A DNA stretch of 64,000 nt from Stappia sp. BW2 (GTDB lineage: Bacteria; Pseudomonadota; Alphaproteobacteria; Rhizobiales; Stappiaceae): the NCBI RefSeq assembly GCF_008107695.1, contig NZ_VIRG01000036.1, positions 310,001 to 374,000 on the forward strand, written 5' to 3'. The notes beneath the pieces are model-generated. The model did not search any database. It saw only the letters and a list, made by a program, of their open reading frames with translations, and had not been told where the DNA came from. A program made the translations under genes and the position numbers. Shown in pieces: positions 51,781-58,777 of the stretch; positions within the stretch are counted from its first letter, which is position 1; every line of letters starts with the position of its first letter.

Positions 51781-53712
51781 ATGCAATTTCATCTCGAAGG
51801 GTTCAAAACCGGCGATCCGGTCATTCAACAGCCGAATCCGGACGCCTCTGCCCTCGCTGATAGCGACAGCCTGCCCGAAGAGGTTGATGTGCTGATCGTC
51901 GGCTGTGGCCCTGCAGGGCTGACGCTTGCCGCTCAACTGGCAGCTTTCCCGGAGATCCGGACGCGGATCGTGGAACAGAAATCCGGCCCGTTGCAGCTCG
52001 GCCAGGCGGATGGGGTTGCCTGCCGGACAATGGAAATGTTCGAGGCCTTCGGTTTCGCCGAGCGGCTGGAAAAGGAAGCTTACTGGGTCAACGAGACGAC
52101 CTTCTGGAAACCGGACCCGGTCACACTGGGCAAGATTGCCCGCAGTGGTCGTGTTCAGGATGTCGAGGACGGGCTGTCCGAATTTCCGCATGTCATACTG
52201 AACCAGGCGCGAGTGCATGATTTTTATCTCGAGATCATGCGCAATTCTGCCAATCGGCTGGAACCCAATTATTCCCGAAAGCTCGTCCATCTTGAAGTGT
52301 CAAATGAGGCGGGCCTGGAGCGGCCGGTGACGGTCCATCTGGAACGGACAGACGGCGGGCACGAAGGCGAGACGGAAACAGTGCGCGCCAAATATGTGGT
52401 TGGCTGCGATGGCGCCCGCAGTTCCGTGCGCAAGGCACTCGGCCGTGAGTTGAAGGGCGATAGCGCCAATCAGGCGTGGGGCGTCATGGATGTTCTGGCG
52501 GTCACGGACTTTCCCGACATCCGCTTCAAGTCATTGGTGCAGTCGGCCGGCGAAGGCAGTATCCTGATCATTCCACGCGAAGGTGGATATCTGGTCCGCA
52601 TCTATGTGGAACTCGACAAGCTGCGTCCGGACGAGCGGATCGCGAACCGGAACATCACGGTCGAGCATCTGATTGCCGCCGCCGGTCGCATTCTTCAGCC
52701 ATATTCCCTCGATGTGAAAGAGGTCGCCTGGTGGTCGGTCTACGAGATCGGCCAGCGGCTTTGCGACAAGTTCGACGATGTTCCGGCAGACGACGCGTCG
52801 GGCCGCCTGCCTCACGTTTTCATCGCAGGCGATGCCTGTCACACGCACAGCCCCAAAGCCGGACAGGGCATGAATGTCTCCATGCAGGATACGTTCAACC
52901 TCGGCTGGAAACTCGCGCACGTGCTGAAAGGATTAAGTGAACCGGATCTGCTGGCGAGCTATTCGGCCGAACGCCAGGCGATCGCTCAGAACCTGATCGA
53001 CTTCGACCGGGAATGGGCAAAGCTCGTCAGCGCGCCGGTAAAGTCGGACAGCAATCCGGATGGTGTGGATCCGGCGGCAGTGCAGAAATACTTCGTGCAG
53101 CATGGGCGCTACACCGCTGGAACAGCCTCACGCTACGTGCCCTCCGTCCTCACCGGCGACGGCACGCATCAGCACCTGGCTGAAGGCTTTCAGATCGGCA
53201 TGCGGTTTCATTCTGCCCCCGTCATCCGTCTCGCCGATGCCAGGCCGTTGCAGCTGGGGCATGTGAACAAGGCTGATGGCCGTTGGCGCATCTTCGCCTT
53301 TGCCGACAGAAGCGACCCGGCGGCGGAAACCTCGGCCATCCGCCGTCTGTGCGATTTCCTGCAAAATGACCCGTCCTCGCCAGTGTTGCGACACACACCT
53401 GAAGGCGAGGATATCGACGCGATCATCGATCTGCGCGCGGTTTTTCAGCAAGACCACCGCGGCCTGAGGCTCACGGCTATGCCTTCAATGCTTCTGCCTG
53501 CAAAAGGGCGCTACGGATTGAGGGACTATGAGAAGATGTTCTGCCCGGATCTCAAAAGCGGCAGCGATATTTTCGATATGCGGGGCATCGACCGGGACAA
53601 AGGCTGTGTGGTGATCGTCCGGCCGGATCAAGCCGTTGCCGAGGTGTTGCCTCTGGAGGCCTGCGAAGCTCTGTCCAGCTACTTCAGTCGCATTCTCAAA
53701 CGCAGAGCGTGA
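51781..53712 (+). CDS. FAD-dependent aromatic monooxygenase (phenol/3-hydroxybenzoate hydroxylase type)
   Basis: A 643-residue group A flavoprotein monooxygenase. The FAD loop GCGPAGLTLA lies at 41-50, followed by the DG motif VGCDGARSSVRKALG and the GD motif FIAGDACHTHSPKAGQGMN. The C-terminal third (about 440-640) is the thioredoxin-like domain of phenol hydroxylase and 3-hydroxybenzoate 4-hydroxylase. The QADGVACRTMEMFEAFGF segment is typical of that group. Uses NAD(P)H and O2 to hydroxylate a phenolic substrate; which one is unknown. Probably controlled by the divergent MarR. Confidence 0.92.
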   Translation: MQFHLEGFKTGDPVIQQPNPDASALADSDSLPEEVDVLIVGCGPAGLTLAAQLAAFPEIRTRIVEQKSGPLQLGQADGVACRTMEMFEAFGFAERLEKEAYWVNETTFWKPDPVTLGKIARSGRVQDVEDGLSEFPHVILNQARVHDFYLEIMRNSANRLEPNYSRKLVHLEVSNEAGLERPVTVHLERTDGGHEGETETVRAKYVVGCDGARSSVRKALGRELKGDSANQAWGVMDVLAVTDFPDIRFKSLVQSAGEGSILIIPREGGYLVRIYVELDKLRPDERIANRNITVEHLIAAAGRILQPYSLDVKEVAWWSVYEIGQRLCDKFDDVPADDASGRLPHVFIAGDACHTHSPKAGQGMNVSMQDTFNLGWKLAHVLKGLSEPDLLASYSAERQAIAQNLIDFDREWAKLVSAPVKSDSNPDGVDPAAVQKYFVQHGRYTAGTASRYVPSVLTGDGTHQHLAEGFQIGMRFHSAPVIRLADARPLQLGHVNKADGRWRIFAFADRSDPAAETSAIRRLCDFLQNDPSSPVLRHTPEGEDIDAIIDLRAVFQQDHRGLRLTAMPSMLLPAKGRYGLRDYEKMFCPDLKSGSDIFDMRGIDRDKGCVVIVRPDQAVAEVLPLEACEALSSYFSRILKRRA

Positions 53713-53879
53713 GGTCGAGCTTCGATAAGTCTTGTTTAAAAATAACTCTGCGTTAAATATCGGATAAAACGTAGAAAAATTTTATCACAATCAAAAATAC
53801 AACTAAAAAATGTAAAACCTAATAAAATCTCTTATTGAGAGAATCGCGCGTCTACTCCCCTTTTTGGGGAGGCGCGGGA

Positions 53880-54230
53880 ATGGGGTCCCAGGACATCGAC
53901 AAAGACCGGGGAGATCGGCTGACGCAGGCAATGCGCAGCCGCGGTCACCGGAAAGCCATGGCTCTGGCAGCGGAGCTGAACATTTCTCCTGCAGCCATTA
54001 CCAAATGGAAGCAGGGGCATGCAATGTCGATAGAGAACGCGTGCAATCTGGCAAATTCGCTCGATATTTCATTGGATTGGCTTTTGCTTGGCCGCAACGG
54101 ACCTGATTGGCTGTTGCCGAACACCATGAGCAGGCAAGAGCTGGAACTGATTGAAAAGCTGCGGGCCCGGCCAACCCGGGTCGTGAAAGTTCTGCTCAGT
54201 CTTGTCACCGAGATCCCTGAGCGAATTTAG
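53880..54230 (+). CDS. HTH (CI-repressor-like) transcriptional regulator
   Basis: A 116-residue protein with an XRE/CI-type helix-turn-helix in its first 75 residues (GDRLTQAMRSRGHRKAMALAAELNISPAAITKWKQGHAMSIENACNLANSLDISLDWLLLG). The SLDWLLLGR ending resembles phage CI repressor N-terminal domains; a cleavable peptidase half is absent. The ATG is preceded by GGGGAGG. It is flanked by very AT-rich DNA on both sides (about 53730-53830 and 54240-54420) and precedes an unassigned cluster, which it may regulate. Confidence 0.85.
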   Translation: MGSQDIDKDRGDRLTQAMRSRGHRKAMALAAELNISPAAITKWKQGHAMSIENACNLANSLDISLDWLLLGRNGPDWLLPNTMSRQELELIEKLRARPTRVVKVLLSLVTEIPERI

Positions 54231-54438
54231 CGGGAACAGTGGCCAAAAAGCAACCACAGGTAAATATCAAGAAGATTGTATAAACCGCCAGTAAACAACT
54301 AAAGATAGAAAATTTTTGAAATTCGCGGAAGATGGTCTTCGAGGGCGATGCATATGAACAAAGTGTTCCTGAAAAATAATTCTGAGTACGGAAAGTCATT
54401 TGCGGCCCTTTTTAAGATAAAATATGGAGACCGAGAAA

Positions 54439-55104
54439 ATGTCTACGCTTTTGACAATCAATGTAAAGAACCTGGAAAACGCCACCCAGGGATTTTATTT
54501 TTTCCAGCAGCCGGCGATCTATACCGGGGGTGGTCAGGTTTACAGCAACAGCCTGTATTCCCAGAGCCTTGGCAACTACGCTCAAACCGGGTCGATCCTG
54601 ACGTTCCAGGTCAACATGCAATATTACGCCGGTATTCAGGAGGCGCACAGCACACCGAAGGTCGGTCAGTCGTCCGGGTTTTCTTCTGCCAGTCGGGCAA
54701 TCGACCTTGCTCCCGCGTCTGGGACGGCAAACGACTGGGTCACGGCGTCCGTGAACCCGCTCGGTCTCACCCAGCCCACCTCCGGCAACGGTGTGCAGCC
54801 CGGGGCCTTCCGCATCACCACGCCGACCTATTCGCCGCCGGCGATCTACAACGTCGGCTCCGCGGTGGAAGTGAACGGTGGCATCACGCTGTCCAACTTC
54901 GTGGTTGCCAACCCGAACAACAACACGGACTGTCAGCCGATCCTGAAATACTACGTTCAGACCGGCGACTACACGCCGGGCACCGTGATGAATTTCACGG
55001 CTTCGAGCGTGGATGCAGCCGTCTGCGATTTCACCGGTGGTCATTCGATCATTGACGTCACGCTGAATGCCGACGGCACCTGGAATACATCCATCGTCAA
55101 GTAA
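54439..55104 (+). CDS. Unassigned protein, member 1 of a paralogous pair
   Basis: A 221-residue protein of no family I recognise. Rich in Ser, Thr, Asn, Gly and aromatic residues with few charges and probably all-beta. No signal peptide. Conserved with the next gene: FFQQPA near 21, LTFQV near 54, YYAG, IDLAPASG at 88-95, SVNPLGL near 104-110, NGGITLSNFV, the Cys165/Cys196 pair (DCQP and AVCDF) and LNADGTWNT at the end. GGAG precedes the ATG at 54439; an upstream ATG at 54424 has no ribosome site. A lectin-, coat- or inclusion-like structural role is only a guess. Confidence 0.75.
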   Translation: MSTLLTINVKNLENATQGFYFFQQPAIYTGGGQVYSNSLYSQSLGNYAQTGSILTFQVNMQYYAGIQEAHSTPKVGQSSGFSSASRAIDLAPASGTANDWVTASVNPLGLTQPTSGNGVQPGAFRITTPTYSPPAIYNVGSAVEVNGGITLSNFVVANPNNNTDCQPILKYYVQTGDYTPGTVMNFTASSVDAAVCDFTGGHSIIDVTLNADGTWNTSIVK

Positions 55105-55132
55105 CGACGGATCCTTTCAAGGTCCTTCAGCC

Positions 55133-55167
55133 TGTGAGCAGGTCTTTCGCCATCCGGCCTGCTCACA
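55133..55167 (+). other. Hairpin between the paralogous genes
   Basis: TGTGAGCAGG and its exact complement CCTGCTCACA enclose a 15-base loop, 28 bases after the first paralogue's stop. No T tract follows, so it is more likely an mRNA 3'-end stabiliser or processing site than a terminator; it could set a higher level of the first protein than of the genes behind it. Confidence 0.5.
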
Positions 55168-55284
55168 CCCCGCCATGGCTGGCAGCACGGGACTTTCCTT
55201 GTGCGATTGCCTCACCATGGTTCCGGCCTTCCCGTCACGGCGGTCGAGACCTGTCGGCGCGGAAGCAAACGAAGGCGCTGACCC

Positions 55285-55995
55285 ATGACCTCTCAGCACC
55301 AGATCATTATTAAGAACCTGTCGAAACAGACGATCAGTTTCTATGCGTTTCAGCAGCAGGCCGGTTTCACCAATTCCGGTGCGAAGCTGACGGTGCAATC
55401 GAGCAGTCTGGCGACGGGGGCACTGGCATCGTATGCCACTTCCGGGTCGCAGCTCACTTTCGGATTCGATACCCAGGTTTATGCGGGGGCGATTGAGCCG
55501 AACACCCAGGCCGCTGTGGCCAATTTCAGTGTGCGACTTTCGTTTTCAACCAACGAGATGGTGGTCAGCCAAACCTCGGCCATTCAACCAGTCGACCTGA
55601 CGCCGGCATCCGGCCAGAGCAACAATCATACGGTCCTGTCGCTCAACCCGCTTGGGCTGTCGGCGGCCAGCTATCAGACCGGGCCGCTGCCCGGAAGCTT
55701 CGGTATCCAGGTGCCGGCCTTTACTCCGGCGCCAACGCCGAACCTCTACTGTGGTAGCGCAGCCATCAATCAGAACGGCGGTGTCACCCTGTCGAGTTTC
55801 GTTGCGCCGCAGCCGAACAGCGATCTCGAGTGCGCTCCGCTCCCGGTCTACTTCGTCAAGGTCGGGTCCCACGCCGTGGGCGAGATCATCACCTACGACA
55901 CGTCGCAAGCTGCCAAATGCGATTTCTCGCAAGGCTATTCGGTCTTCAGCGTTGCCTACAACGCAGACGGAACCTTCACGACAAAAGGGAGGTAG
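55285..55995 (+). CDS. Unassigned protein, member 2 of a paralogous pair
   Basis: A 236-residue paralogue of the preceding product, similar over its whole length by eye: KNL near the N-terminus, FYAFQQQAGF, SYATSGSQLTFGF, VYAG, VDLTPASG at 103-110, LSLNPLGL at 118-125, NGGVTLSSFV, ECAPLPVYFV and AKCDF (Cys183, Cys212), and NADGTFTT at the end. An extra cysteine, C156, is present. No signal peptide or membrane segment. Its role is unknown; the pair probably arose by tandem duplication and may form a hetero-oligomer. Confidence 0.75.
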   Translation: MTSQHQIIIKNLSKQTISFYAFQQQAGFTNSGAKLTVQSSSLATGALASYATSGSQLTFGFDTQVYAGAIEPNTQAAVANFSVRLSFSTNEMVVSQTSAIQPVDLTPASGQSNNHTVLSLNPLGLSAASYQTGPLPGSFGIQVPAFTPAPTPNLYCGSAAINQNGGVTLSSFVAPQPNSDLECAPLPVYFVKVGSHAVGEIITYDTSQAAKCDFSQGYSVFSVAYNADGTFTTKGR

Positions 55996-56060
55996 ACATC
56001 AAGCAGCACCGGAAACTTGAAATATCTCTGTCTTTCAATGTGTTACTGAAAGGAAATGCC

Positions 56061-56468
56061 ATGTTTTCCATTCCCTTGGCCGATGCACCCCGTCCGGTTC
56101 ACAAGGCACGCAGGTCTCTCCTGGCCTTTGCAGCCGTAGCCTTCTGCAGCCTTGCTGCCGCGCAAACGGCGCAGGCGCAACTGGCCTTCTCGCCGGATTG
56201 CCGGAACCACCAGCAAATCCAGGTGAACCCGCCCAAAAATGCAATCCTGTTTTCGAAACATCCGGTGCCGCATCCCGCTGGAACCGCCACTGTGTTCGCG
56301 ATCAATGGTCTGAACAACTATGTCGTCCCCGCGGGCGTGAACTCCTGCGTAGTCGCCGCACCCGATCCTGACGACAACTATTGCTTCCAGGCCCGCAGCG
56401 ACGGGACCATCCTTCAGGTCGGTTTCCAGGCCATCACCAACCCGGGCGGGCTGCCAGCCTGTCAGTAA
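56061..56468 (+). CDS. Secreted cysteine-containing protein of unknown function
   Basis: A 135-residue protein with a Sec signal peptide: basic n-region (RPVHKARR), hydrophobic core (about 19-33) and a likely cleavage after AQTAQA at residue 39. The mature chain of about 96 residues has four cysteines (47, 96, 108, 134), enough for two disulfides in the periplasm or outside. AAAGGAAA precedes the ATG. No family recognised. It lies 65 bases behind the second paralogue, so is probably co-transcribed with it. Confidence 0.78.
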   Translation: MFSIPLADAPRPVHKARRSLLAFAAVAFCSLAAAQTAQAQLAFSPDCRNHQQIQVNPPKNAILFSKHPVPHPAGTATVFAINGLNNYVVPAGVNSCVVAAPDPDDNYCFQARSDGTILQVGFQAITNPGGLPACQ

Positions 56469-56564
56469 TGCCCGCCTGATATCCAGCGCGGTCACGCGCC
56501 AATTGCCCTTTGGTATCCGTCACAAGGGGCAGCTTTTCCTGAAACAGCAGAGGAAAGAAGAGCC

Positions 56565-56819
56565 ATGCCTTATATTTTGAAATCCTATGAAACCGGGGCA
56601 ACCCTGTCCCAGACCACTGACGCACCTCAGGCAACAGGGGGGTTCGAGGAATATGCGCAGGCTGGATGGGTGCCTGCCGCGGCAGGTCTCGGGCTCACAC
56701 GGGGCGGTGTCTACCGGTTGGATGATCCGATGCCGGGCGGCGTCAAGCGCAAGATAAAGGTGGTTGCGATTGGGGCCGGTTTGAATGCGTTCACCTATGT
56801 CCGTGACGGTGTCGCCTGA
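56565..56819 (+). CDS. 84-residue protein of unknown function
   Basis: A short soluble protein (MPYILKSYETGATLSQTTD at the start, GGVKRKIKVVAIGAG near the C-terminus) with no signal peptide or recognisable domain. AGAGGAAAG lies upstream of the ATG. It is last in the series of four same-strand genes following the CI-like regulator, and a strong bidirectional terminator lies about 200 bases on. The composition suggests a small beta-rich fold. Confidence 0.65.
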   Translation: MPYILKSYETGATLSQTTDAPQATGGFEEYAQAGWVPAAAGLGLTRGGVYRLDDPMPGGVKRKIKVVAIGAGLNAFTYVRDGVA

Positions 56820-57010
56820 TTGCAGATGGCTGGCCGGGCGCTAATGCAGATGACACGATTGTCTTCCAACACATTGTGCAGCTCATGCCGGTCGAACATG
56901 CTTTGGCGCCGGGGAGCTGAAGAACCGGAGGCGATTAACCACCGTAATTACTGCATTCCCCAAATGGGGGTATCGCAACGGCACGTTGATCGTACTGAGC
57001 CTGAGGCAGT

Positions 57011-57050
57011 GCAATAACAAAAGGCCCGGCATTGCTGCCGGGCCTTTCGC
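57011..57050 (-). terminator. Bidirectional terminator between the unassigned cluster and rpsA
   Basis: AAAGGCCCGGCA, loop TTGC and TGCCGGGCCTTT form a perfect 12-bp stem. On the minus strand TTTTGTTATT follows (rpsA side); on the plus strand TTTCGCTTTC follows (cluster side). Confidence 0.9.
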
Positions 57051-57079
57051 TTTCGGTTCTCGTGAGAGAAACGGAAATT

Positions 57080-58777
57080 TTAGTCGTCGGACTGCTGCTT
57101 CAGAGCCGCGCCCAGGATGTCGCCGAGAGACGCACCGCTGTCGGAAGAGCCGTACTGAGCGACAGCTTCCTTCTCTTCTGCGATCTCGAGAGCCTTGATC
57201 GACACGGTGACCCGGCGGGTCTTCTTGTCGAACTGGGTGATGCGGGCATCGAACTTGTCGCCAACGGAATACCGCTCCGGACGCTGTTCTTCGCGGTCGC
57301 GGGACAGGTCGGCGCGACGGATGAAGGCGGTCAGGTCGCTGTCTGCGATCTTGACGTCCAGGCCACCGTCCTTGATTTCGACGACTTCACAGGTCACGAC
57401 GGAGTTCTTGCGCAGTTCGCCAGCTGCACCCGATTCCATCGGATCGCCGGAAAGCTGCTTGATGCCGAGGGAGATACGCTCCTTGTCGACGTCCACATCC
57501 AGAACGACGGCCTTGACCATGTCGCCCTTCTTGAACTCTTCGATGACCTGTTCGCCCGGACGGTTCCAGTCGAGGTCGGACAGGTGGACCATGCCGTCCA
57601 CGTCGCCGTCGAGGCCGATGAACAGGCCGAATTCGGTCTTGTTCTTGACTTCGCCTTCGACTTCGGTGCCGATCGGGAACTGTTCAGCAAATGCATCCCA
57701 CGGGTTCTGCAGGGTCTGCTTGAGGCCCAGGGAGATGCGGCGCTTGACCGGATCGACTTCCAGGATCATCACTTCGACTTCCTGAGAAGTGGAAACGATC
57801 TTGCCCGGATGGACGTTCTTCTTGGTCCAGGACATTTCGGAAACGTGGATCAGGCCTTCGATGCCCGGCTCCAGTTCCACGAATGCACCGTAGTCGGTGA
57901 TGTTGGTCACGCGGCCGGTGAACTTGGCTTCGATCGGGTACTTGGCTTCGATGCCATCCCACGGATCGGTTTCAAGCTGCTTCATGCCGAGGCTGATGCG
58001 GTGCGTTTCCTGGTTGACGCGGATGATCTGCACCTTGACGGTCTGGCCGATGGTGAGAACTTCCGACGGATGGTTGATGCGGCGCCACGCAATGTCGGTG
58101 ACGTGCAGCAGGCCATCGATACCGCCGAGGTCGACGAACGCACCGTAATCGGTGATGTTCTTGACCACACCTTCCACGGTATGACCTTCTTCCAGGCTCT
58201 GGACCAGTTCCGAACGCTGTTCGGCGCGGGTTTCTTCCAGAACGACACGGCGGGACACGACGATGTTGCCGCGGCGCTTGTCCATCTTCAGGATCTGGAA
58301 CGGCTGCGGAGTGTGCATCAGCGGGGTCACGTCGCGAACCGGACGGATATCGACCTGCGAACGCGGCAGGAAGGCAACGGCGCCATCCAGATCGACGGTG
58401 AAGCCACCCTTGACCTGGTTGAAGATCTGGCCGGTGACCTTTTCGTTGGCTTCGAAAGCAACTTCCAGGCGGACCCAGCTTTCTTCGCGGCGAGCTTTTT
58501 CGCGCGACAGAACAGCTTCGCCAAGAGCGTTTTCAACGCGCTCCAGGTAAACCTCGACTTCGTCGCCGACCTTCATTTCGCCGTCACGGCCTTTTGCGCC
58601 GAATTCCTTCAGCGGCACGCGGCCTTCGACCTTCAGACCGACGTCGATGACAGCCAGGTCTTTTTCGATCGCAACGACGGTGCCTTTTACGACGGCACCT
58701 TCATACAGGTCGTTCTGAACGAAAGACTCTTCGAGAAGAGCGGAGAAATCCTCCATGGAGGGATTGTAATCAGACAT
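57080..58777 (-). CDS. rpsA: 30S ribosomal protein S1
   Basis: A 565-residue protein with six S1 (OB-fold) RNA-binding repeats; repeats carry the usual GAFVDL/GAFVEL turns (ITDYGAFVDLGGIDGLLHVTDIAW, ITDYGAFVELEPGIEGLIHVSEMSW). It recruits mRNA to the 30S subunit. Strong codon bias fits high expression. It lies 274 bases downstream of cmk, with a small stem (CCGCTTT/AAAGCGG) in the leader at about 58872-58888. In relatives sppA follows it; here the 13 kb accessory block does. Confidence 0.97.
   Translation of the reverse strand: MSDYNPSMEDFSALLEESFVQNDLYEGAVVKGTVVAIEKDLAVIDVGLKVEGRVPLKEFGAKGRDGEMKVGDEVEVYLERVENALGEAVLSREKARREESWVRLEVAFEANEKVTGQIFNQVKGGFTVDLDGAVAFLPRSQVDIRPVRDVTPLMHTPQPFQILKMDKRRGNIVVSRRVVLEETRAEQRSELVQSLEEGHTVEGVVKNITDYGAFVDLGGIDGLLHVTDIAWRRINHPSEVLTIGQTVKVQIIRVNQETHRISLGMKQLETDPWDGIEAKYPIEAKFTGRVTNITDYGAFVELEPGIEGLIHVSEMSWTKKNVHPGKIVSTSQEVEVMILEVDPVKRRISLGLKQTLQNPWDAFAEQFPIGTEVEGEVKNKTEFGLFIGLDGDVDGMVHLSDLDWNRPGEQVIEEFKKGDMVKAVVLDVDVDKERISLGIKQLSGDPMESGAAGELRKNSVVTCEVVEIKDGGLDVKIADSDLTAFIRRADLSRDREEQRPERYSVGDKFDARITQFDKKTRRVTVSIKALEIAEEKEAVAQYGSSDSGASLGDILGAALKQQSDD

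What the first reader, a model, noticed from the sequence alone, without database searches (positions are those of the whole stretch)
53880..56819. Unassigned cluster: CI-like regulator, two paralogous beta-rich proteins, a secreted cysteine protein and an 84-residue protein
Four same-strand genes with good ribosome sites (54439-56819) follow a CI-like HTH gene within accessory DNA bordered by AT-rich stretches. The two larger proteins are clear paralogues (shared FQQ, LTPASG/LAPASG, NPLGL, NGG-TLS-FV, CDF, NADGT), lack signal peptides and match no family I know. The third is secreted with four cysteines. Together they look like a self-contained module, perhaps a structural assembly or a secreted factor under repressor control. 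Function is not inferable from sequence.
Basis: partly seen in the sequence, partly recalled or inferred. Interest (0 to 1): 0.75.

Follow-up and report, generated by a model that had tools for sequence, protein, structure and literature searches.

The report
RhiA-family protein pair with exported partner
A small gene cluster in a marine bacterium belongs to the same protein superfamily as RhiA, an abundant root-zone protein of pea rhizobia whose job is still unknown, and comparing many genomes shows a repeated pattern of one or two such proteins plus a swappable small, usually exported partner.

Summary
R (HTH), A (221 aa), B (236 aa), C (135 aa, exported) and D (84 aa) are real, conserved genes; A and B are paralogues (39%). 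Profile comparison puts A and B in one superfamily with RhiA of Rhizobium leguminosarum, the highly expressed, cytoplasmic, quorum-sensing-controlled protein of unknown function (pairwise E 6.7e-12 over 208 columns; best of 40 shuffled controls 0.021). Two partner swaps support this. A C homologue follows two RhiA-type paralogues in Pantoea. One exported partner family follows A/B genes in some loci and RhiA-type genes in others. The recurring layout is a regulator, one or two RhiA-superfamily proteins, and a small, usually exported protein of several unrelated families, once a NucA/NucB DNase. A was found in 41 genome loci and 101 plasmid records. In 9 of the 41 a luxI gene lies just upstream; the annotated example L020 matches raiIR, for which no target is known. 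It is not the rhiABC operon itself: no collar-domain RhiB, no RhiC, no luxI/luxR found nearby. Biochemical function is inferred, not shown.

The parts
53880..54230 (+). R: 116-aa HTH (XRE/Cro-CI type) regulator, inferred repressor of the module
   Evidence: PF07022 E 2.5e-7 and PF01381 above cut-off; no paralogue elsewhere in the own genome at E<=1e-3; homologue near A in 31 of 41 loci and between two distant superfamily members in L096 (38% identity, 6e-26)
54292..54308 (+). conserved box TAAACAACTAAAGATAG in the R-A gap, candidate operator (TCAAC-N8-GTTGA dyad in some Rhizobium loci; dyad imperfect here)
   Evidence: box pattern found in 18 of 29 R-A gaps, 0.04 expected by shuffling; 0 of 30 stretches upstream of R. 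Pattern chosen after seeing the alignment; the loci are related
54439..55104 (+). A: 221-aa all-beta protein without signal peptide, RhiA superfamily, the most conserved member
   Evidence: AlphaFold2 pLDDT 94.3, pTM 0.88; A+B profile against RhiA-family profile E 6.7e-12; RhiA-family HMM finds A in the own genome at 1.4e-4; dN/dS 0.025
55285..55995 (+). B: 236-aa paralogue of A, RhiA superfamily
   Evidence: 39% identity to A; B rows form one side of a branch, support 99/90; B rows against RhiA family E 6.5e-9
56061..56468 (+). C: 135-aa small exported protein, four cysteines after the signal peptide, one of several interchangeable partners
   Evidence: 14-row alignment with all four cysteines invariant; within 1.8 kb of an A or B match in 34 of 35 plasmid records with both positions printed; homologue beside RhiA-type genes in Pantoea
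56565..56819 (+). D: 84-aa protein, optional extra gene
   Evidence: in L036, L037 and L046 only, 3 of 41 loci; no plasmid record; dN/dS 0.08 and 0.035

Best explanation
R-A-B-C is a regulated accessory module built on the RhiA superfamily. Shown by comparison: A and B are homologous to RhiA; they travel as a pair with R and a small partner; the partner is exchangeable between A/B-type and RhiA-type genes; in Rhizobium some copies lie beside a luxI gene. Inferred: R holds the operon off by binding a box in the R-A gap, and a density or host signal relieves it (in Rhizobium through a neighbouring AHL system, in this Roseibium through another input). A and B then accumulate in the cytoplasm as beta-sandwich proteins, probably as an A-B hetero-oligomer. 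C goes through Sec, folds with disulphides outside the cytoplasm and is the part that acts on neighbours or a host. What A and B do for C (storage, protection of the producer, release on lysis) is not shown. How likely: RhiA-superfamily membership of A and B about 0.95; one functional unit with C about 0.85; R as repressor about 0.7; C-like partners as effectors acting outside the cell about 0.4.
For: Homology: hhalign of the 43-row A+B profile (A3) against 6 RhiA-family rows (A5) gives a pairwise E of 6.7e-12, probability 97.5%, 208 columns; 2e-11 without the intermediate Variovorax row; reversed A5 0.32; best of 40 column shuffles 0.021; eight unrelated single proteins gave E 0.16 or worse with either profile. 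Intermediates: Variovorax protein against the A+B profile 1.8e-7; L096b matches A3 at 2.4e-12 and A5 at 2.8e-7. Linkage: in Pseudomonas L072 an A gene is followed by a RhiA-type gene (30% to RhiA, 4e-20); in Pantoea two RhiA-type paralogues precede a C homologue; partner type 2 follows A-B or A in 5 loci and RhiA-type genes in L090 and L093. From papers: RhiA highly expressed, cytoplasmic, of unknown function (PMC2275737, passages); rhiABC raised in three rhizospheres (PMC3333776, one passage). luxI beside the module in 9 of 41 loci, LuxI/LuxR 79-99% identical to those of L020, whose annotated layout matches the raiI/raiR-dadR-alanine context; the function of rai in R. leguminosarum is listed as unknown (PMC5977203, passages).
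Against: Single-sequence tests are weak: A against RhiA blastp E 1.0, B against RhiA 9e-4 on 22 residues, the A3 profile against RhiA alone only 5e-4 at probability 31%, the first 11-row A profile 0.026 at 1.9%, and A3 did not find RhiA in a whole-genome search at E<=10. The two Pantoea paralogues match the RhiA profile but not the A+B profile (0.14 and 0.12). hhalign E-values are for one comparison, not a database. Codon usage gives no sign of very high expression: A lies at the 62nd percentile of 47 window ORFs, B at the 30th, with rpsA as the only reference. No luxI or luxR was found with my queries in window 45-62 kb, so the control in this genome is unknown. C is truncated or broken in 5 of the 19 C-bearing loci (of 48 examined; L025, L028, L056-L058) while A stays open, so C can be lost without A. 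Only one partner has an enzymatic family match.
Confidence: 0.55

Rival explanations
1. Competition module with swappable toxins: the third gene is an antibacterial or anti-eukaryotic effector (nuclease in at least one case), and A and B are a common chassis that carries, stores or neutralises it.
For: Partners of at least six families not linked by blastp at 1e-5, at one position; one is a secreted NucA/NucB DNase, PF14040 E 7.5e-18 (L043); the roseobacter partner is annotated 'mAFB alternative' in one record.
Against: One clear nuclease among 48 loci examined (10 partner-set proteins were scanned); no PADLOC match for 10 proteins tried; window C, type 2 and type 3 find nothing in Pfam at cut-off or in solved-structure sequences; A hardly changes while partners do, so it is not a partner-specific immunity protein; type 6 and type 7 partners lack a signal-peptide-like start.
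Confidence: 0.25
2. A and B are an intracellular deposit: paralogous beta-sandwich proteins that co-assemble into inclusions or a storage lattice in dense or stressed cells, comparable to PUD-1/PUD-2 or to AidA/PixA inclusion proteins.
For: No signal peptide; RhiA described as highly expressed and cytoplasmic (PMC2275737, passages); weak structural likeness to the PUD-1/PUD-2 heterodimer (Z 3.9), itself an abundant homologous pair (PMC3683130, start of abstract in a listing).
Against: Z 3.9 lies in the range that the tool calls common; average codon usage; does not explain the exported partner. The AidA/PixA comparison is recalled and comes from no call.
Confidence: 0.2
3. Prophage or phage-derived cargo under a CI-type repressor.
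For: PF07022 HTH; RhiB has a tail-collar domain; Foldseek match of A to Mx8 p59 with probability 0.92.
Against: No match to A in 50,697 phage records, none to A or B in scans of viral contigs, none to a RhiA-type protein in phage records; the Mx8 match has E 0.042 and TM 0.23; no gene annotated as phage in the stretches (plasmid annotation is incomplete).
Confidence: 0.04
4. A metabolic or plant-compound utilisation operon, as once proposed for rhiABC.
For: A review passage suggests use of plant metabolites (PMC5793154); several copies lie beside catabolic or transport genes.
Against: A, B, C and D match no Pfam or NCBIfam family at cut-off; the flanking genes differ from locus to locus.
Confidence: 0.06

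Closest known systems
rhiABC operon of Rhizobium leguminosarum (RhiA, RhiB, RhiC; RhiR/RhiI control)
   Same: A and B share a superfamily with RhiA; short operon with a small exported protein; accessory and plasmid-borne in Rhizobium
   Different: two paralogues instead of one RhiA; no collar-domain RhiB; C unrelated to RhiC by blastp; XRE-type R instead of RhiR; here beside rpsA. Strain 3841 carries both systems on pRL10, about 33 kb apart, with C broken in the A-B one
raiI/raiR-dadR context AA of Rhizobium plasmids (PMC13133039)
   Same: the R-A-B-C module is the gene block next to luxI in L020; a closely similar luxI lies likewise in 9 of 41 loci
   Different: the paper's section 19, read whole, does not mention the module; no luxI/luxR found near the Roseibium copy
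RhiA-type pair plus C homologue, Pantoea sp. At-9b pPAT9B01
   Same: same three-gene order: two superfamily paralogues, then C
   Different: the pair groups with RhiA, not with A/B, and does not match the A+B profile directly; no R homologue found
PUD-1/PUD-2 of C. elegans
   Same: pair of homologous proteins forming a heterodimer (PMC3683130, start of abstract)
   Different: weak structural score only (Z 3.9); no sequence relation shown

Membership tests
RhiA superfamily | full-length sequence homology to RhiA | tested here: met
   A3 against A5 E 6.7e-12 over 208 columns; shuffled and reversed controls 0.021 and 0.32 at best; A5 HMM finds A at 1.4e-4 in the own genome. Single-sequence tests weak
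RhiA superfamily | cytoplasmic, no signal peptide | tested here: met
   A starts almost directly with the first beta strand (residues 4-11), B aligns from its first residue; cell location not measured
RhiA superfamily | same fold | not testable with these tools
rhiABC operon | RhiB with phage tail collar domain | tested here: not met
   PF07484 in RhiB, in none of the five window proteins
rhiABC operon | RhiC | tested here: not met
   C against RhiC blastp E 0.13
rhiABC operon | rhiI and rhiR beside the operon | tested here: not met
   no RhiI, RhiR or rai-type LuxI/LuxR hit at 1e-5 in window 45-62 kb
rhiABC operon | very abundant product | tested here: inconclusive
   only codon usage was available and it is average
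lambda-type CI repressor | HTH plus C-terminal cleavage/dimerisation domain | tested here: not met
   only the HTH matches, residues 29-89 of 131 from the TTG start; about 40 residues remain. That CI has such a domain is recalled
polymorphic toxin system | variable toxin with cognate immunity gene | tested here: inconclusive
   partner varies and one is a DNase; no immunity gene recognised, and A/B do not vary with the partner

The most novel reading that the evidence does not exclude
RhiA proteins are the shared chassis of a previously unrecognised effector system: one or two non-exported beta-sandwich proteins co-expressed with one effector, usually exported, taken from many unrelated families, spread by plasmids across Proteobacteria and switched by XRE or AHL regulators. 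The classic rhiABC operon would be one case, and raiIR quorum sensing would exist to switch another.
Probability: 0.25. Interest if true: 0.8.

Novelty: new variant of a known kind. Interest (0 to 1): 0.55.

Why it matters
[quoted passage not shown] leguminosarum in the rhizosphere (PMC5793154, passage) and still has no function. Placing it in a superfamily with a recurring layout gives comparative handles that a single operon could not: conserved A, paired paralogue, swappable partner, dedicated regulator R. It also names a testable target for raiIR, for which passages of two papers say that no regulated genes had been identified (PMC4149787) and that no phenotype beyond its own signal was known in R. 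leguminosarum bv. viciae (PMC5977203).

Tried and rejected
A-B-C as the rhiABC operon itself (my first guess, note): rejected when the annotation of pRL10 showed RhiA and RhiC as separate genes about 33 kb from the A-B pair, with a collar-domain gene between them, and direct blastp failed. Only the profile route then linked A and B to RhiA.

Fold search of A: Foldseek counted 396 PDB and 336 viral matches at E<=10 (50 of each shown), none at E<=0.001; VIA-align best Z 5.0, PepT2. The model of C is unusable (pLDDT 46.8) and was not searched. PDB sequence searches with A1, A2, A4, A6, A7, C, L043 and L063 gave nothing significant (best E 0.085).

Type 3 partner as a nuclease: its C-terminal motif reminded me of toxin RNases, but this is recalled, and neither Pfam at cut-off nor the PDB search supports it. 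L063's third gene looked HNH-like to me; Pfam gives nothing. Codon usage as a sign of high expression: not supported. Box upstream of R: none found. A test of R against PraR was planned and not done.

Rows dropped before counts: L013 and L014 (serine-rich frames, judged unrelated by eye) and L015 (9.6e-4 with a stop inside; no ORF hit); L070 (A broken) left out of the A alignment and of the 48-locus partner count; L026 and L027 also left out of that count; L046 and L061 left out of the R-A gap alignment (R not just upstream); L046, L057 and L075 left out of the distance correlation. That correlation (A-B 0.89, A-R 0.81, B-R 0.90 over 25 loci) is not used as evidence of contact, since shared ancestry explains it. 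In the tree the first 28 residues of two RhiA rows were cut and A/B rows were cut at 232 residues.
Full report
Where it is. The window lies on a contig of a genome whose genus is most likely Roseibium: G030, of the same genus and with an A 99% identical, has a contig of the same length as a Roseibium aggregatum IAM 12614 record (L036). The cluster sits between a phenol 2-monooxygenase family gene (51781-53712; NF006144, PF07976) and rpsA (57080-58777, minus strand; NF004955). The rpsA end was found in 45 of 45 genomes of the genus but A in only 4 of 45 (G000, G030, G069, G062). In G000, G030 and G069 the module lies next to rpsA; in G062 a lone A lies about 8 kb from rpsA, still beside the monooxygenase gene. 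It is therefore an accessory block at a shared site.

The genes are real and belong together. A and B are 39% identical. dN/dS against L036 is 0.025 (A), 0.19 (B), 0.21 (C), 0.08 (D) and 0.13 (R). Among 41 loci found with A in species genomes, R was found near A in 31 and B in 33. A was found in 101 of 72,556 plasmid records, 79 of the 101 predicted conjugative: Rhizobium 45, Serratia 29, Phaeobacter 21, Agrobacterium 3, three others. C was found in 46 plasmid records, 45 Rhizobium and one Pantoea. Of the 35 records for which both positions are printed, C lies within 1.8 kb of an A or B match in 34 (counted by eye; many strains are close relatives); the exception is NZ_CP030762. In evenly drawn samples the family is rare: 4 of 398 genomes of the phylum and 6 of 397 of the order, own genome included.

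What A and B are. Pfam gives no match and NCBIfam and PHROGs none worth naming for A and B. A folds as an all-beta protein with high confidence (pLDDT 94.3, pTM 0.88; the alignment held A and B rows), without a clear match in PDB or viral models. Single-sequence evidence for RhiA is weak: A against RhiA blastp E 1.0, B against RhiA 9e-4 on 22 residues, the A+B profile against RhiA alone 5e-4 at probability 31%, and that profile did not find RhiA in a whole-genome search. A Variovorax protein, itself 32% identical to RhiA (3e-26), matches A (1e-9 as a single comparison) and the A+B profile (1.8e-7). Profile against profile, A+B and the RhiA family align over 208 columns at E 6.7e-12, at 2e-11 with the Variovorax row removed; the reversed profile gives 0.32 and the best of 40 column shuffles 0.021. 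Eight unrelated proteins gave 0.16 or worse with either profile. These E-values are for one comparison each. In the other direction a RhiA-family HMM run on 289 genomes of the class found a match in one, A in the window's own genome (1.4e-4). In a tree of 53 rows the A, B and RhiA groups each lie on one side of a branch (support 85/39, 99/90 and 100/100; some long branches).

Partner exchange. In Pantoea sp. At-9b a C homologue (43%, 1.7e-20) directly follows two RhiA-type paralogues (33% to each other; 3e-14 and 2e-6 against the RhiA profile, but 0.14 and 0.12 against the A+B profile). A second exported family (type 2) follows A-B or A in L050, L051, L059, L060 and L075 and follows RhiA-type genes in L090 and L093 (alignment). 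In Pseudomonas L072 an A gene is followed by a RhiA-type gene (4e-20 to RhiA). Of 48 loci examined for the gene after A-B or A (40 of the 41 genome loci plus 8 plasmid loci), the C type was found in 19 (truncated or broken in L025, L028 and L056-L058), type 2 in 5, a 91-aa type without signal peptide in 5, a 300-aa type in 3, a roseobacter type in 2, a 52-aa type in 2, and single cases of others, including a NucA/NucB DNase with a signal-peptide-like start in L043 (PF14040, E 7.5e-18); in the rest I recognised none. In L024 a different signal-peptide-like protein lies between A and B. Serratia and a Planctomycetota MAG have A fused to a shared C-terminal extension. The layout is thus one or two RhiA-superfamily proteins plus a small, usually exported partner.

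Regulation. R is a small HTH protein (PF07022 and PF01381 above cut-off) without a paralogue in its genome at E<=1e-3. An R homologue also sits between two distant superfamily members in L096 (38%, 6e-26), but none was found in the six loci with RhiA-type genes tested (L072, L089, L090, L091, L093, L111). A conserved box lies 131-171 bases before A in 18 of 29 gaps (0.04 expected by shuffling); the pattern was chosen after seeing the alignment, and the loci are related. In 9 of 41 genome loci, and in plasmid locus L020, a luxI gene lies just upstream of R, pointing away from it. L020 also has the LuxR, Lrp, alanine racemase and D-amino-acid dehydrogenase genes that mark context AA, raiI/raiR-dadR, in PMC13133039 (section 19 read); the LuxI/LuxR of the nine loci are 79-99% identical to those of L020. 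The name raiI rests on that context, not on a sequence test. PMC4149787 (passages) says genes regulated by raiIR had not been identified; PMC5977203 (passages) says no other phenotype was known in R. leguminosarum bv. viciae, while raiI or raiR mutants of R. etli changed nodulation or fixation. The Roseibium copy has no such neighbour in 45-62 kb of the window.

What is known of RhiA. RhiA is highly expressed, cytoplasmic and of unknown function (PMC2275737, passages). rhiABC expression is raised in three rhizospheres (PMC3333776, one passage). RhiR induces rhiABC in response to the RhiI signal (PMC5977203). A 2026 survey reports a collar domain in RhiB and no Pfam domain in RhiA or RhiC (PMC13133039), which I also find. 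The original rhi papers of 1984-1999 were seen only as references (PMC206112 is not held). A search for 'RhiA-like', 'RhiA family' or 'RhiA homolog' found 0 papers in the library, and two further searches listed no title on this relation; that covers only the papers held.

Mechanism. Shown by comparison: superfamily, conserved gene order, exchangeable partner, accessory spread, luxI linkage in some Rhizobium. Inferred: co-transcription, repression by R, accumulation of A and B in the cytoplasm as a pair, action of the exported partner outside. The only enzymatic clue to a partner's activity is the single DNase. Codon usage does not point to high expression of A or B in Roseibium. I therefore hold the identity with high confidence and the mechanism with moderate confidence.

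Novelty. It is a new variant of a known but unexplained kind: related to RhiA, yet failing the defining features of the rhiABC operon (RhiB, RhiC, RhiR/RhiI).

Noticed in passing
L022:4001-4942, L069:6001-6939, L073:1607-2563: A homologues of two Serratia species and a Planctomycetota MAG share a C-terminal extension of about 80-100 residues (41-57% identity) not seen in the other A rows aligned.
   Followed up: partly
L043:7696-8241: The gene after B encodes a protein with a signal-peptide-like start and a NucA/NucB DNase domain; its 20 plasmid relatives are in Streptomyces, Rhodococcus and Mesorhizobium, some in RHS or PAAR-like proteins.
   Followed up: partly
L111:3375-5294: Pantoea pPAT9B01 carries two RhiA-type paralogues followed by a homologue of window C.
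   Followed up: yes
L096:6488-9647: An unnamed alphaproteobacterium has two distant superfamily members with an R homologue between them, followed by a 326-aa gene of unknown type.
   Followed up: partly
L025, L028, L056, L057, L058: C is truncated or broken in several Rhizobium loci while A stays open, and B too except in L057.
   Followed up: no
L093:3153-3839: A further 228-aa protein before two RhiA-type genes looks similar by eye but does not match either profile (0.15 and 0.39).
   Followed up: no
L072:7651-12511: Behind the A plus RhiA-type pair of a Pseudomonas lie an FHA-domain gene (PF00498) and a gene matching the TOMM system kinase/cyclase fusion model TIGR03903 above cut-off.
   Followed up: partly
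window A, model m89f08bc32a05: Foldseek gives Myxococcus phage Mx8 p59 probability 0.92 but E 0.042 and TM 0.23; unexplained.
   Followed up: no
window 53713-57080: The interval between the monooxygenase gene and rpsA seems to be a variable site in the genus: module in three genomes, a lone A plus about 8 kb of other genes in G062.
   Followed up: partly
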